This document shows positions 33,666 through 64,000 of a DNA stretch of 64,000 bases, one piece after another. The notes under the pieces were generated by a model that worked only from the letters and a program-made list of their open reading frames with translations, was not told the DNA's origin and did no database searches. Position numbers and translations under genes: made by a program. Source of the DNA: Rhodamnia argentea. Its lineage: Eukaryota > Streptophyta > Magnoliopsida > Myrtales > Myrtaceae. The first letter of the stretch is position 1. Each line of letters opens with the position of its first letter. The stretch spans positions 18,214,178 to 18,278,177 of the forward strand of contig NC_063158.1 in the NCBI RefSeq assembly GCF_020921035.1, in the 5' to 3' direction.

Positions 33666-34342
33666 TTAGGTGATTTATTTTTCAAATGTCCATCTAATGA
33701 GGGAACTAAACTCATCAATTATAGTGTAAATTATCAGTGATGTTGCACCTCCTTAATTAGCCTTCGCTTATGGCGTGAGTTGAGATAATTGTATTGTAGT
33801 CCGAGAATTGGTGTCTCTTCTACCTTCCTCTATCCTTTGCGTATTCATATCAAGGTTATAACTACAATTGCAGTATTTTTAAGATTATATGTCAAGGTTA
33901 TTATTTCGGCGACGAGGCAATTGTTGTTGCTCTAAATATAATTTTACGTATTTCTTATACTATCATTTTTCTTGCACGATATCCTGATTTTTTTGGTTTA
34001 ATTAATTAAATAAATAAGAACGATCCAATTAAAGGTTATTTGTGGCAGTTCTGTCATTCTTTATATCTTATTTATTTTTTATTCGAATTTAAGACGAGAA
34101 TGGATTTAATGCGAATTTAAGAAGAATTACGCCTTTTTAACGTGCCAACGAAAACGACGCCGTCTGTCTCGTCTTCTTGCTTAAGTTGCTTTTCCTCATC
34201 GGCGTCGTCGTCTTCTTGTTCAGGGATCGGCGCTCGCGAGCCGTGGCTGCATTTTCGAGCCGCCGCCGCCTTCAACCTTCAGGCGCGGGGATATCTGGCC
34301 GCGAAACGCCGTTCACCGCCACACATCCTTTCGCTCCTACGA
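33666..34342 (+). promoter_or_regulatory. Upstream region of the PPR gene
   Basis: AT-rich sequence 5' of the PPR ATG at 34343. The frame of the gene stays open upstream to 34142, but without an ATG, so I treat that part as 5' leader. No specific elements are identified. Confidence 0.4.
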
Positions 34343-37024
34343 ATGTCAGCTAGCCTGCGCCGTGTGCGCAACCCTCCACTGCATTACTCCGCCTCCATCC
34401 CTCTATCCCAACCAAAGGCGCATACGTCCATTCACTTCACAGTCTCTCACCTCCACGAACCCCTAGCTCCTCGAGCCCATTTCGGGCGCAGCCTGTCGCA
34501 CTTCTCTTGCTGCTCTAGCTCGCCCGACGGCAGTCCTGGCTTCGATTTTTTGCGTCAGTTCTTGCCTCATTCGAGCTCGCGCGCAAATAATTTGAACTTC
34601 CTTAATTCACATGAAAGGCGTAGACTCATTGTTGGATTATCCAGACTGATAAAGCGAAGACAAGGATACACTTTGAAGGCCTTTTTCGGTACATTTTGCC
34701 CCTTTTTCCTGGCGAAGATATTGAAGAATTTGCAATCCCGCCATACTGCTTTTGCATTCTTCAAGCTTGTGTTCCTAGGCGATTCTGACGAGGAAGTCCG
34801 CTCGTGTTGCGTGGCTGCGCATATTTTGGCAGCTGAGGATATCCGTCTCCTTGCGCAGGATATTACTTCGTGGGTGATCAGTAGAATTGGGTCGTGTAGG
34901 AGTAAGGAATTGGTAGAGTTTATGTGGGAGAAGCACCACCTTTATGAAACTGATTTCTCTGTTCTTGATACGCTTATGCGGGCATTTCTGAATGTGGGGA
35001 TGATTGAGGAGGCGGTAAGGATTCTGAGTAGGATGAGGGAAATGAACCTGATGCCTAGCGAATCTGCAATGGTTATTCTTTTGAAGTCTTTGCTTAGAGT
35101 AGGTGATTTCAGTAATCTATGGAAATTGTTTAGAGACATGATTTCTAGGGGACCTTTTCCTTCAGATAAATCTGTAAATGTAGTGCTTCTTGGGTTTTGT
35201 AGGAAAGGGCATGTTACAATAGCTGAAAATTTGTGTCACGTGATGGGAAAATTTGGTTTCAAACCTGATGTTTATTCTTACAACATTTTGATTGGTGCAT
35301 ATTGCACTGGCGGAAGGGCATTAGTAGCAATAAACTGGGTGTATCTTATGATTGGGAGAGGTTGTAGACCTAGCAATGTTACGTTTAATACTGTCATCAG
35401 CGCCTTGTGTAAAGATGGCAATGTGGCAAGAGCAAGACAATTTTTCGACAGTGTTCCCGAGATGGGTCTTTCTAGAAATACTTTCATGTATAACTCTCTC
35501 ATGGATGGGTATGTTAAATCAGGGGACATTCTTCAGGCAAATATGCTTTATGAAGAAATGCGAAGCAATGGTATATCTCCTGATTGTGTCACCTTTAATA
35601 TTCTGGTTGGTGGTAATTACAAGTACGGAAGGGAAGAGTATGGTGATAGATTGTTCAAGGATATGCTTGCGTCTAACTTGCTTCCCAAGAGTTCCCTCTA
35701 TGATATAACGGTTGCAGGAATGTGTTGGACTGGTCAAATAGATGAGGCTGAGGAACTTCTGAGGGATATACTTGAGAAAGGAGAACCTGTAAACTTGACT
35801 GCATTTAATACAGTTATTGCTTCTTATGGTAGGGTTGGGATGCATGATAAAGCCCATGAGATTTATCAGTTAATGATGAGATTTGGTCTGTCACCTTCTT
35901 CATCCACATCCAGCTCTCTTCTTTTGGGTTTGTCAAAGAAAGGAAGGTTGCGAGAAGCCAAAGGTCTTTTGTATGATATGATGGAAAGGGGTTTCCCAGT
36001 CAACAAAATGGGCTTTACAGTTCTCTTGGATGGATATTTGAAAGTAGGGGACATAACTCAGGCTCAGAGTTTGTGGGATGAGATGGAACTCAGGGGTATA
36101 TCTCCTGATGCTATTGCCTTCTCAGCCTATATCAATGGACTATCAAAAGCAGGTTTTGTGGAGGAGGCATATGAAATTTTTCAGGAAATGTTAAGGAAAG
36201 AATTAGTTCCAAACAGTTATATTTACAGCGCTTTGATTAGTGGTTTTTGTGACTGTGGGAAGCTAAAACAAGCAGTGACGTTGGAGAGAGAAATGAGGCA
36301 AAAGGGTCTTCTTCCGGATGTCTTTACTTCCAATGCTATCATTGATGGTTACTGCAAACATGGAAAACTGAAGTCTGCCATGGATGCATATATCGATATG
36401 CATCGAATTGGGTTAACCCCTGATATAGTCACATATAACACTTTGATAAATGGGTATTGCAAAGCATTTGACATGGCTATGGCTGATAAATTCATGAATG
36501 AGATCTATGCCAGTGGGTGGAATCCAGATATTACAACGTTTAATATAAGAATCCACGGTTTTTGCTGTAGCAGGAAAATGAGTAGAGCTGTGATGACACT
36601 GGATGAGCTTGCTGCAGCAGGTGTTGCTCCAAATATAGTCACATATAACACAATGATGAATGGCATTTGCAGGGACATGCTAGATCGTGCATTGATTGTT
36701 ACTGCTAAACTGATTAAGATGGCTTTCATTCCAAATGTGGTTACGGTAAATATATTGCTGTCACAATTTTTTAAGCAGGGAATGCCTGAGAGAACCTTAT
36801 GGTGGGGGCAGAAATTGAGTGAAATTCCATTCTGCTTTGATGAGGTTTCCAATAGAATTATTGAGAGAGCCTATGAGAGCATGCAGAATAGTGCTGAGCT
36901 GTTCCGTGGTGCCTCTGAAAAGAGACTCTTTTTGGATTCCTTGATGTACATTACTTACGACTATATGTATAGAAATAGACAGTTAAGTGAACCGAGTCAT
37001 AGTGCAATATACCTTTATGAATAA
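34343..37024 (+). CDS. P-class pentatricopeptide repeat protein, 893 aa, single exon
   Basis: The first in-frame ATG is 34343 (MSASLRRVRNPPLHYSAS). An open stretch to 34142 begins with GTG and is unlikely to be translated first. The N-terminus is rich in Arg and Ser with few acidic residues, typical of a mitochondrial or plastid targeting peptide. From about residue 170 to 820 there are 17-18 tandem 35-residue repeats with signatures such as YSYNILIGAYC, VTFNTVISALCKDGN, FMYNSLMDGYVKSGD and VTYNTLINGYCK. There is no E, E+ or DYW domain at the C-terminus (ends SHSAIYLYE), so this is the P class, expected to bind organelle RNA for stabilisation, processing or translation. Target RNA unknown; I cannot assign an Arabidopsis orthologue with confidence. 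Intronless, as is usual in the family. Confidence 0.9.
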   Translation: MSASLRRVRNPPLHYSASIPLSQPKAHTSIHFTVSHLHEPLAPRAHFGRSLSHFSCCSSSPDGSPGFDFLRQFLPHSSSRANNLNFLNSHERRRLIVGLSRLIKRRQGYTLKAFFGTFCPFFLAKILKNLQSRHTAFAFFKLVFLGDSDEEVRSCCVAAHILAAEDIRLLAQDITSWVISRIGSCRSKELVEFMWEKHHLYETDFSVLDTLMRAFLNVGMIEEAVRILSRMREMNLMPSESAMVILLKSLLRVGDFSNLWKLFRDMISRGPFPSDKSVNVVLLGFCRKGHVTIAENLCHVMGKFGFKPDVYSYNILIGAYCTGGRALVAINWVYLMIGRGCRPSNVTFNTVISALCKDGNVARARQFFDSVPEMGLSRNTFMYNSLMDGYVKSGDILQANMLYEEMRSNGISPDCVTFNILVGGNYKYGREEYGDRLFKDMLASNLLPKSSLYDITVAGMCWTGQIDEAEELLRDILEKGEPVNLTAFNTVIASYGRVGMHDKAHEIYQLMMRFGLSPSSSTSSSLLLGLSKKGRLREAKGLLYDMMERGFPVNKMGFTVLLDGYLKVGDITQAQSLWDEMELRGISPDAIAFSAYINGLSKAGFVEEAYEIFQEMLRKELVPNSYIYSALISGFCDCGKLKQAVTLEREMRQKGLLPDVFTSNAIIDGYCKHGKLKSAMDAYIDMHRIGLTPDIVTYNTLINGYCKAFDMAMADKFMNEIYASGWNPDITTFNIRIHGFCCSRKMSRAVMTLDELAAAGVAPNIVTYNTMMNGICRDMLDRALIVTAKLIKMAFIPNVVTVNILLSQFFKQGMPERTLWWGQKLSEIPFCFDEVSNRIIERAYESMQNSAELFRGASEKRLFLDSLMYITYDYMYRNRQLSEPSHSAIYLYE

Positions 37025-50082: not shown

Positions 50083-50400
50083 TGTCACGCCCCGATCCCC
50101 GAGTACGCAATATCCTACCAAAATGCCTCAAGTCATTAAGGACGACATTTCGGGCACGTCATCGACCTGTACATTTTATCTTCTTAATAAGCACATGTAG
50201 AAACGATCAAAAAAAGAAAAAGGGAGGGCAATCCAGCCCTTACCTATGGCCAGTGATCTCCGCCGGCATCTCCAAGGCCCCGGTGATCAGTAGACGAAAA
50301 TAAGAAAAAAAAGAAAAAAAAAGGAAAGAAAAGAAAAGAAAAGAAAAAGAAAAAAAAGGAAAAAATTCTAGAAAATTTGAAAAAAAATTGCAAAAAGGAT
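50083..50400. mobile_element. Truncated terminus of a TGTCACG-type LTR-like element
   Basis: TGTCACGCCCCGATCCCCGAG is the same kind of terminus found at 51730, 55995 and 61329. Only a few hundred bases of similar style follow before A-rich filler. No ORF. Confidence 0.4.
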
Positions 50401-51729
50401 CGACATTAGCCATGGTTGTGTAGGATGGCCGGAGTCCATTAATGATATTTGGTGAAAATTGATTGAAAATACTAGCAAGTTGTCCAAAGGATTATGAATA
50501 ATTTGACAAGATAAAAAAATTTATGACTGAACTGACTGTGTACAATAGGTTTAAGGCTTTTTGAATAATTATCCCATTGATTTTTCTTGTCCGTTCGCAT
50601 CGAACTTATTGTTGGCAAAATTACAAAACCCTAGCTTTGGATCGTGTCAGAAGACATAATAGAAGATCTTGCGATGTGTCCTCGAGTATCAACCATCGGA
50701 TAAATTAGAGTAATGTTAGAGATATCCAGATTTGTAAACGAAACGGGTAAGCTAAATGATGTGGTAAATAATAAATGATTATTTAAACTAATAGAACCAT
50801 TTCAGCATCCCACAGAAATCTGCCGCATCATTTAGGAAAACCCATTTATTTTCGGCATTATTCCTTCCTTTTTTTTTTTGTTTTTTCTTTTGTTTTCCCG
50901 ATCTATAAACTATCTCAAAGGACACCAAAGCAAATCCAATCAATACCAAAGCAAATCCAATGAATCTTATATAGTGTCCCAAATAAACTCGTTATCAGTC
51001 ATCATAAATCAGTTTCCCTAAGATGACAAGGGTTTTATTATTTTTATTTTTTATTTTTTTTAATGATGGTTAATTTTGTCAAAAATTATGTTTAAAGAGA
51101 CGTACTGTTGTAGATACGCATTCCATCCTTTCATATCTGAGGAAACATATGCATATTATTTTTTTATGTAATCTCTTGAACACTAGTAATAGATACTATC
51201 GTTATGGATTTATAGCCGGCTTACTCCACATGAGAATTGCTTTTCACAAGGATAATTATTCCCATCCAAATGAGATGTTTTAGATAATTTTAGCTTAGTG
51301 GGCTCTGAGTGAGGCTTGTTAAGGATGGTCAGGCCTATCCCCTAACATTTATGGTGGGCTTGGTGTCGGCTCATGTGCACATAACACGTGGCACTCCATG
51401 ATTGGCCGGTGTCCCCTGTAACAAGTGGGTACCCTATCTACCATTGGTATTCTATGCCTAGTTTGCCATATGTTATAACAGTGTCAAGCAATCCTTTTGA
51501 TTGCCTTCGAATACTATTGAAGGAACATTTTAGATGATTGAATGTTTAGGATTTAGCAGAGCATTTTCGTCTGATCAAAGTTGTTAATGTCACATCCACA
51601 AATTTAGACAGCGGACCACTTCAAGGCCCAACCCCGTATTGGTCACATGCCGGTCATGGCACGACCACGAAGCGCGCGCCGGCCTTGGGCGGCCGTGAGT
51701 GCCGACGAAGGACGGCCACAAGCGGCTCT
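50401..51729. other. Gene-free interval
   Basis: AT-rich, no supported gene. A second TGTCAC terminus-like sequence at 51588, followed by GC-rich sequence, may be the edge of another TGTCAC-type fragment. Confidence 0.4.
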
Positions 51730-52050
51730 TGTGACGCCCCACATAGCATTGCGAACGCGTCACATCCGTCAACGCCATAAATACTCCCGGGATAATAACC
51801 ACGGTGCACGTATGAAATGAAGCAAGCATGCGGAAAGTAAAAACAACTCCATACAAAAGACAAAAGGATAACTTGGGATAACAACTATATACGGGATAAA
51901 ACATTCGGTTCATATGCAACGGTCGGGGAAAGAGCATACACCAGTACACATTAGGGTCGGAGGAGCCGAGGACCAAATCCAAAAGGGTGCATCAAGGTCC
52001 TAACAAAAGAGATCTATTCCCAAAAGTCATCTTGAAAACCCTTAAGGTCA

Positions 52051-52506
52051 CTAAGTCGAATCGTCGGCTTCGTCTTCATTTTCCTCATCGTCATTATCGG
52101 GATCATAGTCGGAGAAGGTCTCGGAGCGCACCTCTGCCGAATCGTCATCCATATCGTCTTCTGGAGCGGATATCTTAATCACCTCGATACTCTCCTTAAC
52201 TGTCGGGGTTTTCTCGGAAACATTCCTCGAACCAACCATCGAAACCTCTACCTTTATCTCGTCACGAACTGGATGACACCAAGAAGGTACGACACCTTTA
52301 GAGACCTCGGTAGCCTTTAGTGGACCAGTAGTACTATCCCCGACGCGACGAATCCATACTTCAAAACGATGAGGTTTCCAATGCTCCCCTCCCTCATCGA
52401 CCCAAACAGTAGTACATTTTCTAACAAAAACTACACCACGACCATTTGGGAACTCATCAAAATAGGCAGTCATCTCCTTGGGATTGCCTAGGCGTATAGG
52501 TAGCAT
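52051..52506 (-). CDS. LTR-associated small acidic-tailed protein, intact copy (151 aa), unknown family
   Basis: The ATG is at 52506 (MLPIRLGNPKEMTAYFDEF). The centre has CTTVWVDEGGEHWKPHRFEV, then GDSTTGPL. The C-terminal third is strongly acidic (DDMDDD, DYDPDNDDEENEDEADDST). I do not recognise the family. Homologous frames occur in the same position in unit Q (61651-62052) and unit R (57735-57980), where they carry stops. A T-run plus CAG just upstream looks like a 3' splice site, with a GTAAGTCTC donor-like site about 50 bases before it, so a spliced leader is possible. No signal peptide or membrane segment. Retention of one sequence pattern in three diverged repeats argues for a real protein. 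Confidence 0.55.
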   Translation of the reverse strand: MLPIRLGNPKEMTAYFDEFPNGRGVVFVRKCTTVWVDEGGEHWKPHRFEVWIRRVGDSTTGPLKATEVSKGVVPSWCHPVRDEIKVEVSMVGSRNVSEKTPTVKESIEVIKISAPEDDMDDDSAEVRSETFSDYDPDNDDEENEDEADDST

Positions 52507-52800
52507 CTTCAAGGTTTAGGATCTGAAAAAAAAAAAAAAAACAAATCCCACGAAGGGGTGAGACTTACGTCTCAATAAGCTAGCCCTAAACCTAAACTAG
52601 GTCGTCGGTCCCACCAGACCACGCATTAAAGACCGTAGGCAAAGATTTATCAGACCAAGCAATACATGATATCCAAATATCAATGCATCTATGGCATAAT
52701 TGGTATATAGCAAACCACCAATCACGAGGATGTAAAACACGTGAAACCAAGCTACGAACTAACACAAACAATTCGTAAGATGAAAATTTTTCCGTCATTT

Positions 52801-53791
52801 CGGGTGCGTTTGGGAATAGCTTTCCCAAGGGACTTTAGACCTCTAAAGTCCTTTGGGAAAAAGTTTAGGTGTTTGGTAACTTTTTTTTGGGCCACTTTGG
52901 GAAAATGCTACCATTAGCCAAAGCTGAAAGCCCAAAGTAGGTGGAGACCCGCCTTGGACTTTGAGCATTTTCGGAAGGCTGGTTTCAAGGTAAGTATTGA
53001 TTTTTTTTTCCCAAATTGCCCCCACGGATAATTATTTGTTCCACTTTTGCCCTAAAAAATCATTCGTCTTCTTCCCAATGCCCAAGCGTGTTCTTACGCT
53101 CACTGGTTCTCATTCAAGGCGAGGTCATCTTCTTCCCAACGCCCAAAACTTGGGTTGAGATCGAGGGCCACGGTGGCCGTCAAGCCGCTATCTTAGCCGG
53201 AGTTGTTGTCTTTGTCTGATTTGTTGTGAGTTGAGGTTGAGATCGAGATCGAGATCGAGCGACCCAGATCTGGTTCTTTGACCGCAGATCCGTGACCTCG
53301 GCGTCCCTCACTTGGCGTCGCGCATCCCCGGCGTCGCCTCACTTGGCGTCGCGCATCCGCGGCATCGCCTCACCCGAGGTCACGTGACCCCGCCATCTCA
53401 TCCCTCAAGGTCGATCTACCCCGATGGCCTTCGCCTGGGGTCGCGATGTCGGCGATGGGTTTCACGAAACTTCTCTGACCTTCGTCGCCCGGGCTTCGCA
53501 AAACTTCTTTGACCTTCATCGTCCGGGCTTCGCCGAGCTTCGACGGGAGTTGCGACAAGCTTTGTGGCTTCGCGTGGGCGGCGATCGCTTCTGGCCAACA
53601 ATTGGCTGCCTCCGTGCTTCCCCTGCCATGCTTACCTTCAGTTTTTTTTTTATTTTATTATTTCAAAGTTGCTTTGCAAAATATACATGAAAATGGGTTA
53701 TCCAAACACCATTAGCTTTCACCAAATACACCTTCGCTCAAATATCTTTGGGAAAATGACTTTGCATTTACCTAAAGTGGTCCCAAACGCA
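52801..53791. mobile_element. TIR DNA transposon (non-autonomous) inserted in unit P
   Basis: The left end GGGTGCGTTTGGGAATAGC and the right end in reverse, GGATGCGTTTGGGACC, are inverted repeats. TTC directly flanks both ends (3-bp duplication). The interior is GC-rich with a direct repeat (CCTCACTTGGCGTCGCGCATCC twice, about 53307-53360). Frames across it are compositional. Confidence 0.65.
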
Positions 53792-53821
53792 TCCTTCATC
53801 ATAATTCTCAACTCAAAGATT

Positions 53822-53990
53822 TAGTCCACGTTCGGACGCATCGGACTATAACGGTTCTTAAACCCGCGTTCGGACGCTTCGGGTTTCTAGTGCCATTTTA
53901 AGGCTTATGTCGACATACATTAGCTAATCTCGCGTTCTGACGCATCGGGATAATTTCAATTCACTACCCCATGTTTCGACACATCAGGGT
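53822..53990 (-). repeat. Hairpin array in unit P
   Basis: Four units with a common core (on +, CGCGTTCGGACGCATCGG and variants) enclosed by arms that pair. TAGTCC/GGACTA (53822-53848) and AAACCC/GGGTTT (53860-53886) are perfect 6-bp pairs. AATCTC/GGGATA (53926-53952) is near-perfect. ACCC/GGGT (about 53966-53990) is perfect over 4. Inside, GCGT-TCGG-ACGC forms a second stem. A related lone hairpin, GCAACT/AGTTGC, lies at about 54205-54222. Confidence 0.7.
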
Positions 53991-56659
53991 GCCATGGGCC
54001 CTTAGGCTTGACACCTTCGCTACTCAAGGCCTAAATCTCGTACGGCCACTTGAGGTTACATGGCAATCAAATGCATACATCAATAATTTAGCCATAAAAT
54101 TAAAGTTTCACAGCGTAACAAATGCACATGGCTCAATCCACAACCAATTCATTCGGCCCTCATCAAATTGAACAGTATAAATATTCCCATTCATCAATTC
54201 AGCAAGCAACTCGTCCAGTTGCGTCCTAATGTCCTAATATAGGTTTAAGGGTCACTTACCCTTAGATTGAGCTAAAAATTTCCAAATCGCACGACCCTTC
54301 TAGGTCAGTAACTCTTGGCCAAAACAGGGATCAAGTGCCGTCCTAGGAAAAACCACATTTTCCATATTAAAACTTAATCATTTCTCAAGTCCCTTGTGCC
54401 AATACCTTAATAACATCTCATACAATGACTTATGATGTCTCACTAATCATTTCCAAGCCAAATTACCTCTTATTTAACCCCCAACAGATTCAGTTTTTAA
54501 CAGAGCACCCACAGGGCAAAACCGGTTCTGGGTTAATCATGCTAAACAGCCCCTTAAACCTCATTTATTCCTCAATTTATCACTTAATCTCTTCATTAAC
54601 ACCTCAATACATGAGTGTAGATGTCTTACCGTGAATTTGAACTTCAATTAACACCCCAAATGGCTTCACACAGCTCTGTTTCCAACCGGTCTGCAAGAAG
54701 ACAGAATCTGTCTTGTGAAATTCAACCTAAACCATCCATAGAACCACATCCAAAACCAAATAAATTCTCAATCTCAGATCATCAAACCCTACTATTATAT
54801 GTTGGGATCAAGTCACCGAAAATTTGGGACTATTTGAGCTCTTAAAGCCCACTAAAAGCTCAACAACTCATGTCAGCTCGAATTCTGACCTTCGTCCATT
54901 CCAACTGCTCTACCGGAAAAACTACTGGCCCATTTTTTTCCCATAATATGTCCCTGGAAAGCCAAGACAATTATCTTTCAAATGGAGGTGACCTTATCTC
55001 AAAAAGATGTCGGACGAAGGAGATATGGCCGAAACAGTGAGCAGCAACAGTTCTGTCCGGCGACAAAAAAAAAAAAAAAGAGAGAGAATGAGCAGAAACT
55101 TTCAGAGCAAGGGAAATGGTTATCCACGAGCTGAAGGAGAAAGAAAGGGATTATATTTGGTCTTTCTTAGTCAATGGTCAATGGGTCAAAAGTGCAATAG
55201 TTGACTCCAATTATTGATGGCAATACGGGGTCTTGCATTGACACTTAGCATCCACAATAAAATATCCACCAAAAATTTCATATTTTCTTATCATTTTCTA
55301 TCAACACATATATAAGGGAGAAAATGACTAAATTGCCCTTATACCACCTTATTACATGCATTAACCTTGAGGGCAAAATGGTCACTTTATACTTTCTATC
55401 CAAAATTTCATTCCCTCGATGAGGCGATGTCCAATACGTATCCAATGTTGAGATTCTTCATTTCCATTTTTTTTTCTTTCCAATTCAAGATCCCATTTCG
55501 TGATCGATTTTTCGTCAATCGTAATTCCAGTTTATTTCGAACTAACGGGTGGCTTTTGTAGACGTTATGCGTATCGACTCTGTGATCCTCATCACACTTA
55601 GGATGACTCAAGATACGACGACTTAATTTCCATGTAATTGCGAGAGTTTATTACTAGTTCCGACGGTCTCGATCGTCATAGTTCGATTTAGGAAAGATTT
55701 GCAAATCATACGTTGGTTAAGCGGCATCACACGCGTCTTAATCGTATAACGCTAGCAATAGATTCCACCATCGTTCTTAGATCGGCCTTTATTGGTTCTA
55801 AACATTCCCTTGGCAATCCTTATGGTCAAAGCGCCATTTCTCATTCGAGTTTCGCAGGTCCACGTACTTTGCCATGCGTTAGCCTTTCCCTTTGGTCAGT
55901 TAACTTAGGATTGATCGGATCCGAGCGAAATAAAACTGAAATACATCAATAGATATTTCTCATTCAACGGTCTTGAATTGGCAGGAATTTCAGAATGTCA
56001 TGACCCTCCTGCGGCATCATAGTTTAGATTTTCTTGAGTTATAATTGATTTTGATGATTTGTATGATTAATTAGTTTAACAACAAGACTAGTCAAATACT
56101 TAGGGAAGAAGAAGTTTTGTGATTTTCTTCATTTAGAGGATAGAAAACCCTAAGTTTTAGAATTTTCTAGAGAAACTAGTAATTAAGCTAGCTTAGGAAA
56201 CCTTGTGATTGGTCCACATACTAGCAAATTAATCAAATTAGGCTAGCTTGGAGAGGAGGAAACCTTATGATTGGTCCAAAAAAATTAATATTTGACCTAA
56301 CTTTGACTATGTCTTGGGGAATAAGAAAACTATACGGTTATGACATTCGGCCTACTTAATTTAGGATTAAAAATTAATATTAATCTAGATTATGCAAGAA
56401 GAAACCATGTGATTTTGCCACATTATCTAGCCTAATTAGACATGTGATACTTAGGCAAAATAGGCTTGGAGAAGAAGAAATCTTCTCATTAGTCAAATTG
56501 CATTAATCATATGATTTTAGATTAAAAATAAATAGGCTTAGGCAACAAGAAATCTTATGATTGGTCCACTAATTTTAACCATATAAATTAGAGCTTAGAC
56601 TTGGAACTTTCCCATTGGTCCACTTAGCTAGTCATCACTACAACCATCGTGATATCTTG

Positions 56660-56670
56660 CTCTATAAATA
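56660..56670 (+). promoter_or_regulatory. TATA box of unit R
   Basis: CTCTATAAATAGAAC followed about 45 bases later by a pyrimidine-rich leader (CAAGCTCTCTCTCTTCCC). A classic plant core-promoter arrangement inside an LTR. Confidence 0.5.
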
Positions 56671-57734
56671 GAACACCTTCACATCATCTAGTTTTTCCCC
56701 AAAGTCACAAGCTCTCTCTCTTCCCTCCGGTTGCCGCCACCTTTTCTTCCTCCCTCCACTTCTTGGCCGCGTCACCGAGACCACCACCGCTGCACGTTTT
56801 TGACATTTTATCTTGAGTAGAGTAAGTAAATTCTCTTATCTTAAGTCGAGGCATTTGCTCACGGTTAGTTTGATTTCATGTGCTTGAATGCTTGGTTGGT
56901 TGCTTAAAGATTGGCATATATTTTTTTCAAAATAGATAAGAAAAACCGCGTTCCGATCGCGGAGAAAAGACGATGCCTTGAGCCGGTCAGCTTTCTTGTG
57001 CCTTGCCGGCCTTGGTCACCTACGTTTCGCACCGGTCTTGTTTAGCAAATAAAGGCATGCATCTTGACACTTTAGCACCGCAAGTACGGTTGCTTGCCAT
57101 GTCTCTTAAAGGATGAAAAAGATAGTGTGTTATGATCACATAAAGAAAACGTAAGAACCGCCATTACTTGAGGTGACGGTGATGCCTTGCTAGAGGGTGA
57201 GATGCCTTGTCCGATGGCGGGATGGCTCATTTGACCGCGAGGCTTGGTATGGGATGGGTTGAGTGGGAATGATAGTGAGACTTTTCGGGGTTAACGATGA
57301 GATGCCCCGAGGAGTGTTTTGGGATGCCGCTGGAGTTTGCGATGCCCCGTAAGAGAGAAATGGGAGGTCCCCCACGGAAGGGTTGTTAAATAGGATGCCG
57401 TGGAGTGTGATGCCCCTTGATGGGAAGCCCATGACTTACGACAAGAATGATGATTATGATGAGAAAGGGAAAATAAAATAATGAAATGGACGCATGATTG
57501 TCATGCATGAACATGAGGCATCTAGGAAGTATCTTGCATGAAAAGAAAGATTTCTTTGCTATTGTTTTGCTATTTATGCATGTGGTGGTGTACAAAGTTA
57601 TATTTGATATGTATCTCATAATCCTTTTTAGTTTTGTAGGCGCCAAATGAAGCGGTAGGTAAATTCCTTTCTTTAGGACTATAGATTTTACTTACTAAGT
57701 GTCGACTTACTCTTTAACATTTTAGACTTGTAGG

Positions 57735-57980
57735 ATGGGGAACGCGCACGTTGGCGTTCCTATTAATAATGAGTTTTTATTCACCGACCTAGTTGATGTG
57801 GAGGAGAACCTTACCTACCGCTGTTGCAATTCTACCGTGTGGATACAAACTAGCATGATAGATCGTGTTCCTCTCAAGTTTTATGCATAGAACATAGTCG
57901 GGGGTAATGGCCTCATCGGTCCTTTCCATGGGTCCGGTGGGTCGAGCGGCCCCAATGGTGGGGGTTCGGTCACCGCTTGA
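57735..57980 (+). pseudogene. LTR-associated small protein, unit R copy, one in-frame stop
   Basis: The ATG at 57735 opens MGNAHVGVPINNEF, then LTYRCCNSTVWIQTS...VPLKFYA and a TAG at 57888-57890. Without a break the frame continues NIVGGNGLIGPFHG to a TGA at 57978. YR-C-x-STVW and GxxIGP line up with YRHATTV...GDISMGPL in unit Q and VRKCTTVW...GDSTTGPL in unit P. The stop falls where P and Q have tryptophan (VW/AW), so it looks like a TGG-to-TAG change. The acidic tail is not retained here. Confidence 0.5.
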
Positions 57981-58607
57981 TGACCATGAGACTTGAGGGT
58001 GACCAATTTTGGAGTCCGAGTAGCGAAGTTAGGCTCCCCTCTACCCTACCTTTTTCCTCGCTTGTAAATTGGAACAAATAACCTTGTACCATGCCCGATG
58101 ATAATAGTAATAAAATATGGTGTGTTATGTGAAATCTTGATGACTCTACGTTTTCTTGTTTGAATGACTTGTTGGGGATGTTTGTTTCGCTTCCACATGA
58201 ACGAAGAATAACTAAAATAAGAATGTGATTTGACGTGACGCGCCTGGGACGTCACGACCTCGACCGGCCTCGGTTTCAACTAGTGCTAAGCTAAAGCCAT
58301 CGCCGGGCGAGAACGCCTCTTTCGTGGTGGCGGACCGATCCGGGGCGTTTCAGTTAAGGTCTCGAGCATGTTCAATAATAAAAAATATTTTACTATTCGA
58401 TTCAAGATCAACCCATTAAGGCTCTCAGATAGTGTTCCGTGATGAACAGAAGCTTTTAATGTTCCATACCACCCTAAAAAGGATTAAGACGAATTTTGTA
58501 ACTTCATCCGTAATGAGAGATGGTACCCATTTCAAGGGAATGTGACATTTCCTCGCAACAATTGCACCAAAGTACTTCAGTTGGTAAACAATTTCTTATG
58601 TGAAATT

Positions 58608-59248
58608 TGTTGGGCCTTTGGTCTCCAAATTCCATAAGAAGATAAATGAGAAGTGAAGGATGGAGCAAAATCCGAACAAATATGTTTGTTTGATTTTTTC
58701 TTTGAACAAACATGTTCTTTTGAAAGATGTCTATTCGATTTCATGACTCTTCATTCTTTTGGAAGATGTCTATTCGATTTCATGACTCTTCATTCTATTG
58801 GAAGATGTCTACTTGATTTCGTGACTCTTCATTCTGTTGGAAGATATCCATTCGGTTTCGTAACTCTTCATTCGTTTGAAAGAGAACTATTCGGATTAGT
58901 GACTCTTTGTTCTCAACCTTTAGTTCGTGACTCTTCGCTTCATTGTCTATAAATAAAGCATTAATCGTCGCATGAAAAAACGACTACCATTTTCGTCATT
59001 CATACTTCATTATTCATCAATTATACGATTATTCTACAAAGTGCGTTCGAAGGTTTCCTCCGAAGAAGTACCACTTTAGAGGAAAAGGCAATCCGTTCTA
59101 TCTTGAGAGACAATTGTCCAAGAACTTTGGGTACCGATTGAGGCGACAAATTTGTCTTAAGGACACAATGTCATTTCGTTGGGCTCGGATCATTCCTTTA
59201 CATTCGGATTACTCATTTACGTTTGGATTCGGGTTTGTTGATTAACAT
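58608..59248 (+). mobile_element. Ty1/copia element, left LTR
   Basis: Begins TGTTGGGCCTTTGGTCTCC and is closely matched by 60739-61328. It contains five 39-bp tandem repeats (58722-58916) and a TATA-like CTATAAATAAAGC near 58948. The right boundary (near GATTAACA) is approximate; no TGGTATCAGAGC-type PBS is visible after it. Confidence 0.7.
58722..58916 (+). repeat. 39-bp tandem repeat x5 in left copia LTR
   Basis: Units start at 58722, 58761, 58800, 58839 and 58878 with consensus GGAAGATGTCTATTCGATTT then CGTGACTCTTCATTCTnTT. The period is exactly 13 codons and the frame stays open. The same five units are in the other LTR at 60854-61048. Confidence 0.9.
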
Positions 59249-60738
59249 TATTCTACATATATGAACATCTATAAGCAACAACAATCTTAAGACAAATTCT
59301 TTTTTCCGTGCTTCGTTCTTATAGTTATTTTTGTTGTACGCATTCCGTTTCGGCGATTATTGGTTAGGTTGAAATCCAATTTCGTTGCTTGGTTCCGGCT
59401 TTGGTCTTGTTAAGATTTTGAAAGCCATCGCCTTTCTTTGCACAATTGAGCCATTATGGGGTTTTAGGTTGCATCGGATGCATTTGGAGAATTACGAAAC
59501 TATTCCTCGTTCTGTTTATTTGGCAATATTAGTTTAACACATCCGGACGTAGATGATTTAGAGTTTATGCGCTAGAGCATGGATATAAGTAATGAGGCGT
59601 GCGATGATCACCGGGGAAATTTACTGTTCATATCAATTTTGTATGTTTTATTTTGGGTGAAGTTTTTAAAATAATCACATAGCCAGAGAGGGCTCATCGA
59701 TACAAACATTTAGACTAGTCGTCGATCGTCGGAGGTCGCCCGACGGAGGCTCATGCGCCCCCACGGGCCGGTGGGACAGTACCCGTAGGCTACACGCATC
59801 TTTGGGGCGAAACTATGTAACCACGATTGACTTCAACAAGTCAAGTTTAGGAACTTCAAGTGATCATGCATGAGATTCATGTTGAAGGTATGGTTTTAAG
59901 TGAATCACTTCAAATGCTATTTTCATTGAAAAGTTACCAATGTCTTGGAAAGATTTCAAGAATTATCTCAAAGTGTGGGGGTGAGGAATATTATGTATAA
60001 AGGTAAGTCTCGACATATACGTCCAAGACGCGATACTGTAAGACAATTACTCTCTAGTGGAATTATCTAAATTGACAATGTGAAGTCAAAAGATAATGTT
60101 GCGGATCCATTAACAAAAGGCCTAACTAGAGAGATGGTTCTGAAAACATCAAGGGGAATAGGTTTAAGGCCTATAAAATAACCCATCATAGCGGAAACCC
60201 TACCTAGTTGATTGGAGATCCCAAGATCTAGATTCAAAGGGACAACCAAGTTATGCAAGCGATGTAGAGTACTGTCAACTACTACTCATTTCCATATGGA
60301 GACAGTACTAGTATGTGAAGATTAAGCACAAGCTTTTAATGATTCTGAATCGGGTATGCAATATACCATATATTCAGAAATCACCTATGTGAGTGTGAAG
60401 TGAGAGCCGCTACTGTGAGAATTGGAAAGGCCGAATTCTTTAAAGCACTCATGAAACCAGAGGGTGTTTATGGCCAAAACGAACACAACAGTAAGAACCA
60501 ACTTTGTTTGAGAGATAATTATGTGATTTCTATTATCTAGGCTTACACCAAATGTCGACGGTTCAAGGACATCAAGTTTCTTGATTGATCGAGTAAGTCC
60601 GATAGGTCTCACTAGGGAAAGTTCAAAGTCTCGGACTGCTGATCCCGATGCAATCGTCTCTCATTGAATAATCGCACACTGCATCTCATGCATTTACAAA
60701 GAGTCATGATAACTGAACTTCTCATTCATGTGGGGGAT
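59249..60738 (+). mobile_element. Copia internal region, large deletion; RNase H end retained
   Basis: Only about 1.5 kb lies between the LTRs, where a full element would have about 4-5 kb. At 60001-60180 the plus strand encodes the end of copia pol: GKSRHIRPRRDTVRQLLSSG, an in-frame stop, then NVKSKDNVADPLTKGLTREM. A polypurine tract (TGGGGGAT) precedes the right LTR. Gag, protease, integrase and reverse transcriptase are missing; 59640-59830 is unrelated GC-rich sequence. It is a non-autonomous derivative of a Tork/Tnt1-like element. Confidence 0.75.
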
Positions 60739-61328
60739 TGTCGGGGCCTTTGGTCTCCAAATTCCATAAGAAGATAAATGAGAAGTGAGAGATAGAGCAA
60801 AATCCGAATAAACATGTTTGTCTAATTTTTTCTTTGAACAAACGTGTTCTTTTGAAAGATGTCTATTCGATTTCGCGACTTTTCATTTGTTTGGAAGATG
60901 TCTATTCGATTTCGTGACTCTTCATTCTATTGGAAGATGTCTACTCGATTTTGTGATTCTTCATTCTATTGGAAGATATCCATTCGGTTTCGTACCTCTT
61001 CATTCGTTTGAAAGAGAACTGTTCGGATTAGTGACTCTTTGTTCTCAACCTTTATTTCGCGACTCTTCATATCATTGTCTATAAATAAAGCATTGACCGT
61101 TGCATGAAAAAACGACTACCATTTTCATCATTCATACTTCATTATTCATCAATTATGCGATTATTCTATAAAGTGCGTTCGAAGGTTTCCTCTAAAGAAG
61201 TACCGCTTTAGAGGAAAATGTAATCCGTTTTATCCTGGGAGACAATTGTCCAAGAACCTTGGGTATCAATTGAGGGGACAAATTTGTCGTAAGGACAAAA
61301 CGTCATTTCGTTGGGCTCGGATCATTTC
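60739..61328 (+). mobile_element. Ty1/copia element, right LTR, interrupted by unit Q
   Basis: Starts TGTCGGGGCCTTTGG after the polypurine tract and follows the left LTR, including the 39-bp repeats, to CGGATCATTTC. There the left LTR continues TTTACATTCGG, but here TGTCACGACC begins. The remainder of this LTR should lie beyond the window. Confidence 0.8.
60854..61048 (+). repeat. 39-bp tandem repeat x5 in right copia LTR
   Basis: Units at 60854, 60893, 60932, 60971 and 61010 correspond one to one with those of the left LTR, so the array predates or was copied with the last transposition. Confidence 0.9.
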
Positions 61329-61650
61329 TGTCACGACCTGAACCCTACGAGCTCGAAAACATCTCCTTTGGCCACGCTTATGTACAGTTCTCCGGGATCC
61401 AAAGGCCAACAAAAACAAAACATACGGAAGTAGAAAAAAATCCCCGTACAGAAACCAACAACAATACGATAGCTTGGGATAGCAAAAACAAACTTATATA
61501 CATATACACATGTTCTATACAACTTTCCAAACCTAAGGCTTCGGAGGCCACTGTACAAGCCTGTGACCACTACAACAAAAAGATTACGTGGTCAAAGCCC
61601 GCTATACTTCCAAAAGAAAACACTCAGCAAAAGTCAAGAGGCCAACTACC

Positions 61651-62052
61651 CTAGGCCTCATCCTCGCTATCTGCTACTATATCATTTACAGTTGCCAACT
61701 CATTCTCGTCAACTTCGGGTGGCTATTCCGCATCAGATGGCTCTACAACTTCCCCATCCTCTCCCGGCACCATGACCTCCGGGTCGGGCTCCAAGTCTTT
61801 GGGACTAGCATCGGGGTGCACCACTACGCCGTCTAGAGGTGCAGTACTAGTGGGGTCCTATTCCCCAACTCCATCGTAGGGAATGTCAAAACCTCTTAGC
61901 GGACCCATCGATATATCCCCGTGGCGGTACGTCCACGCCACGTATGTGTGGGGCTTCCAATAAAGTTCTCCCTCGTCAACCCGGACCGTGGTAGCGTGCC
62001 TATAATATACTTGATCTTCCCCAACCGGATACTCCATTACTAACGTATCCAT
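61651..62052 (-). pseudogene. LTR-associated small protein, unit Q copy, two in-frame TAG stops
   Basis: The ATG at 62052 opens MDTLVMEYPVGEDQVYYRHA, then TTVRVDEGELYWKPHTYVAW and GDISMGPLRG. TAG stops occur at 61858-61860 and 61723-61725, yet the same frame continues as an acidic tail (LEPDPEVMVPGEDGEVVEPS; VADSEDEA) to a TAG at 61651-61653. The match to unit P spans the whole length, including the tail's character. Just upstream RFGIP-stop-DM parallels P's RLGNPKEM, so the original start was probably further upstream. Confidence 0.55.
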
Positions 62053-62318
62053 GTCTCAAGGGATCCCGAATCTCTAGGGCGGATCATTCATGGTCGAGGC
62101 GGAGGGTCCGAAAAAGAGAGCCCACGACGGGGAGAATAAATCTCAGTAAGAAAGTCCTAATCATAGATCGGGGCACTAGTGCCTTTGGACACGTCACAAG
62201 TTAGCAATTCTTAACAATTCATCTCACAATCAATAATTCACCAAATAAAATTCCAGAATAAACTTCCTTCTTTCTCTCAACTTGCTACATCCTCATAAAA
62301 ATTCCACGTTACTCCCAT

Positions 62319-62678
62319 GCCCGCGTTCAACGCCTCAAGCTATAATAAAAATATTCCACGTTACTCCAAAGCCGGCGTTCGACGCCTCAAGCTATAATAA
62401 AAATATTCCACGTTACTTCAATGCTCACGTTTAACACATCAGGCTATCATATAAATGGATAGACCCGTATAATAATGCCTCAGGCCATTATATAGTCCGG
62501 ACCCGCGTAATAACACCTCAGGTCACTATAACCCGCGTAATAACGCCTCGGGTTAATATCCCGCGTTTAATGTCTCGGGATAAAATAATACACGTAACCC
62601 GGCGTTTAACGCCTCATAACGCCTAAGGGCAAAATATGATCTTATAAATACGAACCCCGCGTCATAACGCTTCAGGGT
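62319..62678 (-). repeat. Hairpin array 1 in unit Q
   Basis: About eight units with core (on +) CGCGTnnnAACGCCTC. Pairing arms: TAACCC/GGGTTA (62529-62555), TATCCC/GGGATA (62557-62582), GACC/GGTC (62500-62524), ACCC/GGGT (62654-62678). The first three or four units (from 62319) and the one at 62463 pair poorly and look decayed. The inner stem GCGTT/AACGC is conserved. Homologous to the array in unit P but with different arm sequences. Confidence 0.7.
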
Positions 62679-62738
62679 AAAATTCCGCACTTCCTCTCAA
62701 TTATTCCACATAAAGACCATATAATAACAATAATTCCT

Positions 62739-63270
62739 CGATCGCTCGTCCGATACCACACGATCGCATAAAACCTTTCAATCGATCAATCTTCACCACG
62801 TGATCTTGCTAAACTTCCCGATTAGCGGATCGAGACCACACGATCTCACAAATTTTCTCTAATAAAAGATCGGGACCACACGATCTTTCTAATTTTCCTC
62901 AACTGCTCAATCGAGACTGCTCGATTTAATTGTACTGAATAAATACTCGATCGGGACCACGTGATTCACTCACGTTGAATAAATAATAAATCGGGACCAC
63001 CCGATTAAATCACACTCAAGCTGTCGGCCAATCGGGCCATACGATTAATTTATGCTATCACAAAAATTAATCTATGCCACACGATATTAATTATGCTAAC
63101 GTAGCAATTAATAATCACCGTACGATCAAAATTATACTAACTACAATTAATACGTACCATACCGTTAAATGATACTAACGTGGCAATTAATCGGGACCGT
63201 ACGATTAAAATACTCTAACGTGCATTTAATTTCCACCACACGATTAATCTACATAAAGCGGAATTCAATC
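62739..63270 (-). repeat. Hairpin array 2 in unit Q, fixed 8-base loop
   Basis: A dozen or so units with core (on +) CG-GGACCACA-CG. Perfect stems: AAAGATCG/CGATCTTT (62865-62888), AATCG/CGATT (62909-62926 and 62989-63006), TTAATCG/CGATTAA (63187-63208), GATCG/CGATC (about 62828-62845), AATCG/CGATT with a 7-base loop (63030-63046), ATCG/CGAT (about 63268-63283). Others are degenerate. Stem sequence and length vary; loop size is nearly constant at 8. Confidence 0.7.
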
Positions 63271-64000
63271 GTAGCCGCACGATAAATCTTCCTAAGCAAG
63301 ATTCAATATAGGCCGTTCAATTAAAGCATGATAAAGCTAGATTTAATCCTAGCTCTCCAATCTTAATCATGCATTACTATTCACTTCAAGAACACATTTT
63401 CTCTCTCCTCCTTCCTCAATTTCGGCCAAGCTTGTTCTAAGCACAAATCCAACAAAATTTTCACCAAATCTACTCAATCCAAGTTCCATTAGCAACCTAG
63501 ATACCTAATCCAAGATTAGAAACCAACTTACCCAAAGTCTAGCAAATTTTTCTGGTGAAAAGTCGAGAGAAAATTTGACCTCGAATGGCGTATCTGGCGA
63601 TTCCTCTCGGTCGGCTATAACCCACGTTACTCCGGCGGTTCCGGGCGGTTCACGGTGGTGGTTAAGCTTCGGCAGTTCAAGGTGAGGTCGGTGGTGGCTT
63701 GAAGAAAATCCGGCGGTGGTGGTGATGAAGAATTCGGCCAAGAGAGAGAGTGTGAGGTAGAGAGAGAAAGCTTCAAGAAATTATGAAGAAGATGATAAAA
63801 ATCATCAATATAATAGGTTAGGATAATTCTTGGAATAGATATTTTGGGGTCTTGAAAGTCAAGAAGGGAAAATTGGTAATTCCACCAACCAAGACTAGTC
63901 CAAATTTTCGGCCACTAGGGGTATTTATCGAAATGCCCTTGAGCCAAAGTGAAAAATTGGATATTTTCCAAGGGTAAATGGGTCTTTTCTCATTTCCAGT

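What the first reader, a model, noticed from the sequence alone, without database searches (positions are those of the whole stretch)
52051..62052. An unrecognised short protein carried at the same place in three diverged LTR-like repeats
Units P (52051-52506, intact, 151 aa), Q (61651-62052, two TAG stops) and R (57735-57980, one TAG) each carry a frame with the pattern YR/VRK-x-x-TTVW-VDEG...WKPH...GPL. It lies about 0.3-0.8 kb before the LTR end and directly after an intron-like 3' splice site, on the presumed sense strand. P and Q share an acidic tail. P and Q are minus strand and R is plus, so they are independent insertions. The protein signal is stronger than the flanking DNA similarity. 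A protein encoded inside an LTR, expressed from the LTR promoter through a spliced leader, is unusual; most LTRs have no gene. It could act on host silencing or packaging, but I have no evidence for function.
Basis: partly seen in the sequence, partly recalled or inferred. Interest (0 to 1): 0.8.

Follow-up and report, generated by a model that had tools for sequence, protein, structure and literature searches.

The report
A protein gene inside retrotransposon LTRs
The long end-repeats of a common plant jumping gene, usually taken to be only switches, carry a small protein gene that evolution has kept working, so even a leftover single repeat may still be able to make that protein.

Summary
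The window is plant DNA; its 346.7-Mb assembly was searchable. P and Q are real homologues (41% over 58 aa; 0 of 2000 shuffles reach the score). Corrections: Q starts further up, with two more stops; R is only a probable, distant relative. At least 150 P-type and 150 Q-type copies were scored, of 1213 and 1402 candidates. They sit in LTRs: 18 and 10 same-strand pairs 7-10 kb apart, none opposite, chance ~0.1; one pair encloses a Ty3/gypsy gag-pol, with ~3.24-kb LTRs and AAAGC on both sides. Splice signals precede the ORF; no RNA was available. No Pfam or PDB relative was found. P-type tails carry a SUMO-interaction-like motif, degenerate in Q-type. Best reading: an accessory gene inside the LTR of a Tekay-like chromovirus; a silencing role is inferred. 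Known plant extra ORFs lie between the LTRs.

The parts
51730..56000 (-). LTR P (no gag-pol beside it: a solo LTR), sense on minus strand; carries a ~1-kb insertion at ~52806-53793
   Evidence: Similarity between P and copy L003 stops ~770 nt after the ORF start; GGGGCGT.AC-type end shared with paired copies; 5' start resembles the LTR start TGTGACATTCTG of the paired element. Right edge (56000 or 56002) uncertain; no target repeat recognised.
52051..52506 (-). LTR ORF, P copy, 151 codons plus stop, intact
52523..54259 (-). predicted intron of P: donor CTAAGG|GTAAGTGACC at 54259, acceptor TTTCAG| ending at 52523 (includes the ~1-kb insertion)
   Evidence: Same donor 752-757 nt before the ORF in L002-L005; acceptor test 86 of 110 copies against 166 of 2200 random 60-mers. 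Splicing itself not shown.
55148..55159 (-). TATA-like sequence of P (CAAATATAATCC)
   Evidence: sequence; not tested
52054..52191 (-). acidic tail of P with SUMO-interaction-like motif SIEVIKISAPEDD
   Evidence: 43 of 46 intact P-type copies carry such a motif; its codons have the lowest pN/pS in the two deeper bins, 0.12 and 0.20; tail letters
61329..64000 (-). LTR Q (runs off the window), inserted in the second LTR copy of a copia-like element
   Evidence: TGTCACGACC edge at 61329 interrupts the 90% repeat 58593-58892 / 60725-61024
61651..62091 (-). LTR ORF, Q copy, broken by four in-frame stops (TAG, TGA, TAG, TAG) before its end; other Q-type copies are open
63523..63539 (-). predicted splice donor of Q (GACTTTGG|GTAAGTTGG)
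   Evidence: sequence
51588..51729 (+). probable 5' end piece of LTR R, separated from the rest by P
   Evidence: TG start; GTTAA at 51583-51587 repeated at 58353-58357; adjacency in other copies not tested (searches unanswered)
56001..58352 (+). main part of LTR R: TATA box 56662-56674, donor at 56822, acceptor ending at 57725 or 57733, AATAAA 58109
   Evidence: sequence; end GGGGCGTTTCA
57735..57980 (+). probable distant LTR ORF, R copy, one TAG
   Evidence: profile 11.5 bits, 0 of 2000 shuffles, but one unrelated segment scores 10.8; pairwise not significant

Best explanation
It is an accessory gene that lies wholly inside the ~3-kb LTR of a Tekay-like Ty3/gypsy (chromovirus) retrotransposon family, so a complete element carries it twice and a solo LTR can keep it, as P does. 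Shown by sequence: the ORF is in both LTRs of full elements, its protein has been kept by purifying selection while the elements multiplied, and donor and acceptor sites lie at fixed places before it in most copies tested. Inferred: the LTR promoter makes a transcript whose 0.7-0.9-kb intron is removed; it ends at the LTR's own poly(A) site (a short mRNA, possible from solo LTRs too) or runs on into gag-pol. Inferred with less confidence (about 0.35): the ~150-aa product works in the nucleus, its conserved first ~95 residues forming the working domain and its acidic tail docking on SUMO-modified host proteins, most plausibly to blunt silencing of the element.
For: Own-genome search: 150 copies scored of 1213 candidates, best E (P itself) 1.5e-99, next 2.2e-92; 74 of 150 without a stop in the match; 18 same-strand pairs 7-10 kb apart, 0 opposite-strand, random placement mean 0.14, maximum 2. 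Q-type: 150 scored of 1402 candidates, 10 pairs, mean 0.12, no overlap with the P list. Between one pair: one frame with gag, zinc knuckle, protease, RT, RNase H, integrase zinc binding and SH3_Tf2-1. That pair's LTRs are 97.8% identical over 1332 nt compared, end ..GGGCGTGACA, are ~3.24 kb long, with AAAGC on both outer sides. 11 LTR pairs compared are 87.2-97.8% identical. Selection, 46 intact copies: median dN/dS 1.10, 0.55, 0.37, 0.38, 0.22, 0.19, 0.24, 0.15 with rising dS; neutral simulations: medians 0.79-0.83, 2.5% points 0.44-0.56. Third codon positions hold 57% of differences at dS 0.4-1.0; the downstream flank (40 pairs) shows 33/34/33%. Q-type, 5 copies, 10 pairs: dN/dS 0.13-0.38. 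P-Q: none of 2000 neutral simulations reaches the protein score, 2 reach the identity count. Acceptor in 86 of 110 copies against 166 of 2200 random stretches; donor at a fixed place in 19 of 30. SUMO-type motif in 43 of 46.
Against: No RNA or protein evidence. Copies were gathered by protein similarity to P, which favours conserved protein, and dN/dS used intact copies only, in non-independent pairs; 586 of 1035 pairs were saturated. At dS 0.4-1.0 the LTR flanks differ less (0.13-0.25) than synonymous sites (0.67-0.80), and upstream about as much as nonsynonymous sites (0.14-0.15): unexplained, perhaps exchange of ORF segments. 24 of 110 copies fail the acceptor test and 11 of 30 have no donor at the fixed place (P's own lies further up because of its insertion); Q lacks the AG. 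The SUMO motif: 644 of 2300 shuffled tails also pass the loose pattern, and 5 of 5 fetched Q-type proteins have proline in the core (EVVEPSDAE-like). The chromodomain match is below Pfam's cut-off (E 0.093). The window-only AlphaFold model is useless (mean pLDDT 46.7).
Confidence: 0.75

Rival explanations
1. The protein is real and selected, but does not work through SUMO: the conserved first ~95 residues bind RNA or gag and serve packaging, RNA export or suppression of RNA silencing, and the acidic tail is only a charged spacer.
For: The N-terminal part is conserved in both P- and Q-type, the SUMO-type core only in P-type. A sunflower study suggests silencing modulation for other Tekay extra ORFs on structural grounds (PMC11728184, passages read).
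Against: The motif codons are the slowest in the two deeper P-type bins, pN/pS 0.12 and 0.20. No RNA-binding family matches.
Confidence: 0.4
2. The frame acts in cis: as an upstream reading frame or spacer it tunes translation or splicing of gag-pol, and its product does nothing.
For: It lies upstream of gag in the predicted full-length RNA; splice signals sit beside it.
Against: A cis role does not predict low dN/dS, third-position excess, or protein similarity between P and Q where blastn finds no DNA match.
Confidence: 0.07
3. Artefact: a chance frame or a non-coding conserved LTR stretch.
For: Flanks are less diverged than synonymous sites in middle bins; R alone would fit chance.
Against: 58 of 110 copies uninterrupted over >=125 codons; periodicity inside the frame, none in the flank tested; neutral simulations do not reach the observed values.
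Confidence: 0.02
4. A captured or host-domesticated gene kept for the host's benefit.
For: Some plant retrotransposons have picked up host domains (PMC9289625, search listing only).
Against: Copies are many and paired as LTRs; no host relative in a database that does hold plant proteins, though only P and the P/Q/R alignment were searched there; dN/dS is ~1 in the two closest pairs, as for inserted copies that no longer matter.
Confidence: 0.04

Closest known systems
Extra ORFs (aORFs, eORFs) of plant LTR retrotransposons, e.g. ORF0 of Retrosat2/RIRE3/RIRE8 and the 5'aORF of sunflower Tekay (PMC3485330, PMC11728184, PMC7264820; passages read)
   Same: A conserved extra protein of unknown function besides gag-pol, in elements with ~3-kb LTRs; Retrosat2/RIRE8 LTR ends (TGTCACACCC..GGGCGTGACA) resemble these
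   Different: Those ORFs are described in the internal region, upstream or downstream of gag-pol; this one lies wholly inside the LTR, is in both LTRs and survives in a solo LTR (P). ORF0 was not found outside grasses; sequence similarity not tested here.
gag-pol frames that run into the 3' LTR (CRM clade, some Reina elements; PMC3605345, passages)
   Same: Protein-coding sequence overlapping an LTR of a plant chromovirus
   Different: There it is the end of gag-pol (chromodomain); here a separate gene with its own start and stop, ~2.5 kb into the LTR and ~0.3 kb before its end
sag of mouse mammary tumour virus (LTR-encoded superantigen; recalled, and seen in the search listing)
   Same: A protein gene inside an LTR
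   Different: Animal retrovirus, U3 of the 3' LTR, spliced from an upstream promoter (recalled); no sequence comparison made; here each LTR seems to hold promoter, donor, acceptor and ORF
SUMO-interacting motifs with acidic/serine flank (recalled consensus)
   Same: EVIEISDSED-type core and acidic flank in P-type
   Different: Core broken by proline in the 5 fetched Q-type copies; binding untested

Membership tests
Ty3/gypsy LTR retrotransposon | gag, protease, RT, RNase H, integrase in that order between two LTRs | tested here: met
   Pfam on L033: gag, RVP_2, RVT_1, RT_RNaseH, Integrase_H2C2 above cut-off, rve below its cut-off; LTR pair and AAAGC on both sides. Pieces of L031 and L034 also match protease, RT, RNase H or integrase parts; L032 was only listed for frames.
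Chromovirus, Tekay clade | chromodomain at the integrase C-terminus | tested here: inconclusive
   PF00385 E 0.093, 13.1 bits against cut-off 25.1; SH3_Tf2-1 strong
Chromovirus, Tekay clade | placement by RT phylogeny | not tested
   No reference set of plant RTs at hand; Tekay is inferred from ~3.24-kb LTRs, end GGGCGTGACA and gag-pol ending just before the 3' LTR
Plant extra ORF (aORF) | conserved ORF distinct from gag-pol in many copies of a family | tested here: met
Plant extra ORF (aORF) | located in the internal region, 5' or 3' of gag-pol | tested here: not met
   ORF lies inside both LTRs
MMTV-sag-like LTR gene | protein gene inside an LTR | tested here: met
MMTV-sag-like LTR gene | sequence or structural homology to sag | not tested
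   no comparison made; only stray single-member Pfam hits, best E 0.043
SUMO-interacting motif protein | hydrophobic core with acidic flank, conserved | tested here: inconclusive
   43 of 46 P-type; 644 of 2300 shuffled tails pass the same loose pattern; 5 of 5 Q-type have proline in the core
SUMO-interacting motif protein | binds SUMO | not testable with these tools
   needs a binding assay

The most novel reading that the evidence does not exclude
Some plant retrotransposons keep a self-contained anti-silencing gene inside their LTR: promoter, intron, SUMO-docking accessory protein and poly(A) site. Solo LTRs, usually seen as inert scars left by recombination, would then be dispersed working copies that can supply the protein in trans, which would also help explain why these LTRs are so long.
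Probability: 0.2. Interest if true: 0.9.

Novelty: new variant of a known kind. Interest (0 to 1): 0.72.

Why it matters
LTRs are treated as control DNA. [quoted passage not shown] A selected protein gene inside a ~3-kb LTR gives a testable reason for their length, means that surveys built on gag-pol overlook LTRs that still code (P is one), and offers a new accessory protein family in which to look for anti-silencing or packaging activity.

Tried and rejected
Protein database (5.8 billion): P alone 16 candidates, P/Q/R alignment 57 candidates, none at E <= 10. The third search went to a control, which showed that plant proteins are held; so the fuller family alignments were never searched there. 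Viral contigs twice and genome contigs once: no relative. Pfam on A4 (22 members): four families, each in one member, best E 0.043. PDB profiles: best E 0.64 and 0.41, chance. Rfam on the window: none at gathering scores. AlphaFold with window sequences only: pLDDT 46.7, not used further. Rejected: P and R as one head-to-head bidirectional element; the LTR end of P at 51730 and GTTAA around R fit nesting better, though P's own target repeat was not found. Searches for the R family and for the P/R junction did not complete.

Literature: searches showed no separate plant LTR-encoded protein in their listings or in the passages I read; the library is open-access only. Passages read: PMC8282616, PMC11656987, PMC11728184 (also outline), PMC6317226, PMC3605345, PMC7264820, PMC3485330, PMC4093653, PMC2864245. 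Steinbauerova 2011 was not seen.

Rows dropped: 110 of 150 P-type copies fetched (40 not); 52 of those 110 not uninterrupted over 125 codons; of the other 58, 12 left out of dN/dS (length outside 420-475 nt, or L006, L045, L065 with altered starts). Q-type: 5 of 150 fetched. Loci L031-L034 (internal regions) were not ORF copies.
Full report
What the sequence is. The window is plant DNA; the assembly it comes from has 346.7 Mb in 74 contigs and the window lies at C9:18214178-18278177. P, Q and R are LTR-type units. P (about 51730-56000, minus) carries an insertion of ~1 kb. Q (from 61329, minus) interrupts the second LTR copy of a copia-like element whose copies are 58593-58892 and 60725-61024. 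R (plus) appears to be split by P: TG at 51588 and CA at 58352, with the exact 5-base repeat GTTAA outside both. That P lies inside R explains why the two look head to head; P's own target repeat was not recognised, so the nesting is likely but not proved.

Check of the observation. P and Q encode homologous proteins: 24 of 58 residues identical, score 128 against a shuffle mean of 26.0, 0 of 2000 shuffles reaching it, while blastn finds no match between the units at E <= 0.01. In that stretch codon positions 1, 2 and 3 are identical in 39, 33 and 22 of 58 codons; 0 of 2000 neutral simulations at equal DNA identity reach the protein score and 2 of 2000 the identity count. Other Q-type copies are open further up (NDAPRRFEIPRNM in L117, RRFGIPRDM-like in the other four, whose fetched stretch ends there); the window has an ATG for this start at 62091, followed by a TAG and a TGA. 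R is weaker: pairwise it is not significant; a 15-sequence profile gives 11.5 bits, above all 2000 shuffles and in register from residue 4, but its open first piece alone gives 8.5 and an unrelated segment of the window 10.8.

A large family inside LTRs. Searching the own genome with P scored 150 matches of 1213 candidates; with the Q piece, 150 of 1402; the two lists do not overlap. Of the 150 P-type matches 74 have no stop inside. 18 P-type and 10 Q-type pairs lie on the same strand 7-10 kb apart, none on opposite strands, against 0.14 and 0.12 expected by random placement, maximum 2. Between the members of one pair lies a 1539-codon frame with gag, zinc knuckle, protease, RT, RNase H, integrase and SH3_Tf2-1 domains. 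In that element the LTRs start TGTGACATTCTG, end GGGCGTGACA, are about 3.24 kb long, 97.8% identical over the 1332 bases compared, and AAAGC stands on both outer sides. The ORF begins about 2.5 kb into the LTR. Eleven pairs compared are 87.2-97.8% identical; at an assumed (recalled) 1.3e-8 substitutions per site and year that is about 0.6-4.6 million years.

Selection. Of 110 fetched copies 58 are uninterrupted over at least 125 codons; 46 entered dN/dS. Median dN/dS by dS bin: <0.05, 1.10 (2 pairs); 0.05-0.1, 0.55 (23); 0.1-0.2, 0.37 (103); 0.2-0.4, 0.38 (100); 0.4-0.7, 0.22 (18); 0.7-1.0, 0.19 (30); 1.0-1.5, 0.24 (6); 1.5-9, 0.15 (167); 586 of 1035 pairs saturated. Neutral simulations under the same counting give medians 0.79-0.83 with 2.5% points 0.44-0.56. 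Differences at codon positions 1, 2, 3 are 36/29/35% in the 0.05-0.1 bin and 23/19/57% at dS 0.4-1.0, while the downstream flank of 40 pairs shows 33/34/33%. Five Q-type copies give dN/dS 0.13-0.38 in 10 pairs. This is the pattern of a gene selected while elements replicate and released after insertion.

Results against. Copies were found by protein similarity and only intact ones were used; pairs share history. In the dS 0.4-1.0 bins the noncoding flanks differ by 0.13 (upstream) and 0.24-0.25 (downstream), less than synonymous sites (0.67-0.80); the upstream value is no higher than the nonsynonymous one (0.14-0.15). Between the L010 and L012 types the ORF differs more than its surroundings. 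Exchange of ORF segments between subfamilies would explain it, but I did not test it. At greater depth, L001-L010: flank blocks more than 120 nt upstream and those downstream differ at 46-60% of aligned sites, the 120 nt just before the ORF at 25-37%, the ORF at 23-40%; for L010-L040 the contrast is weaker (ORF 33-63%).

Expression signals. Before the ORF, 86 of 110 copies have a pyrimidine tract with YAG within 60 nt, in 72 of these at 9 or 16 nt from the start, against 166 of 2200 random stretches. A donor lies at a fixed place in 19 of 30 copies examined: ATCTAAGG|GTAAGT at -752 to -757 in 4, GTAAAT or GTAAGT in a like context at -831 to -877 in 15; L001 (P), L006 and L012 have the motif at another distance, the other 8 lack it in that context. 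P's donor is at 54259 and its acceptor ends at 52523; R has a TATA box at 56662, a donor at 56822 and acceptors ending at 57725 or 57733. Splicing and translation are therefore predicted, not shown.

The protein. About 133-157 residues as read here, a conserved N-terminal part (R29, V36, W51, V73 and P79 invariant in 15 P- and Q-type sequences) and an acidic tail. 43 of 46 P-type copies carry a motif such as EVIEISDSED, which fits the recalled consensus of a SUMO-interacting motif; its codons are the slowest in the two deeper bins (pN/pS 0.12 and 0.20), but 644 of 2300 shuffled tails also pass my loose pattern, and the 5 fetched Q-type proteins have proline in the core. No family or solved structure matches; no relative in the protein database with the two queries made, although plant proteins are held there; none in viral or bacterial contigs. 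The AlphaFold model from window sequences alone is not usable.

How it most likely works. The LTR promoter yields an RNA whose leader is spliced to the ORF; the product is an accessory protein used in trans. My first choice for a single mechanism is docking on SUMO-modified host proteins, to weaken silencing (about 0.35); the other protein functions taken together (RNA or gag binding, packaging, silencing suppression) are about as likely (0.4).

Comparison. Extra ORFs are known in plant LTR retrotransposons, but the review PMC7264820 and the papers PMC3485330 (Retrosat2 ORF0) and PMC11728184 (sunflower Tekay) place them outside the LTRs, up- or downstream of gag-pol (passages read). Retrosat2 is listed under Tekay in PMC6317226, has LTRs over 3.2 kb, and the LTR ends it shares with RIRE8 (TGTCACACCC..GGGCGTGACA) resemble those here. 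In CRM and some Reina elements the end of gag-pol runs into the 3' LTR (PMC3605345), which is another thing. An LTR-encoded protein is known from MMTV (search listing). My searches showed no separate LTR gene in plants; the library is open-access only. I therefore call it a new variant of a known kind.

Noticed in passing
window 51583-51587 and 58353-58357: Exact repeat GTTAA around the P+R block; best read as the target repeat of LTR R, with P inserted near R's 5' end.
   Followed up: partly
window ~52806-53793: ~1-kb insertion inside P's predicted intron with inverted ends TGCGTTTGGGA..TCCCAAACGCA, probably a non-autonomous DNA transposon.
   Followed up: no
window 58593-61329: Copia-like element with a short internal region (LTR copies 90% alike, 2132 bases apart), its second LTR interrupted by Q; the LTRs hold a 39-base tandem repeat.
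   Followed up: no
L010 and L012 types, e.g. L010:1501-1956: Between these subfamilies the ORF differs more (also at synonymous sites) than the LTR around it; suggests exchange of ORF segments between elements.
   Followed up: partly
window 62297-62700 (Q), L111:100-360: Predicted LTR introns hold arrays of short palindrome-like repeats (CGCGTTATAACGCCTC-like); a 52-base tandem array at 62297-62456. Role unknown.
   Followed up: no
window 50083-50300: Another LTR-like end (TGTCACGCCCCGATCCCC) with a splice-donor-like GTAAGG nearby on the minus strand; possibly a further fragment of the same superfamily.
   Followed up: no
window 34142-37024: Open 960-codon pentatricopeptide-repeat frame; the best relatives, from many flowering plants, are up to 60% identical over the 501 residues searched.
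   Followed up: no
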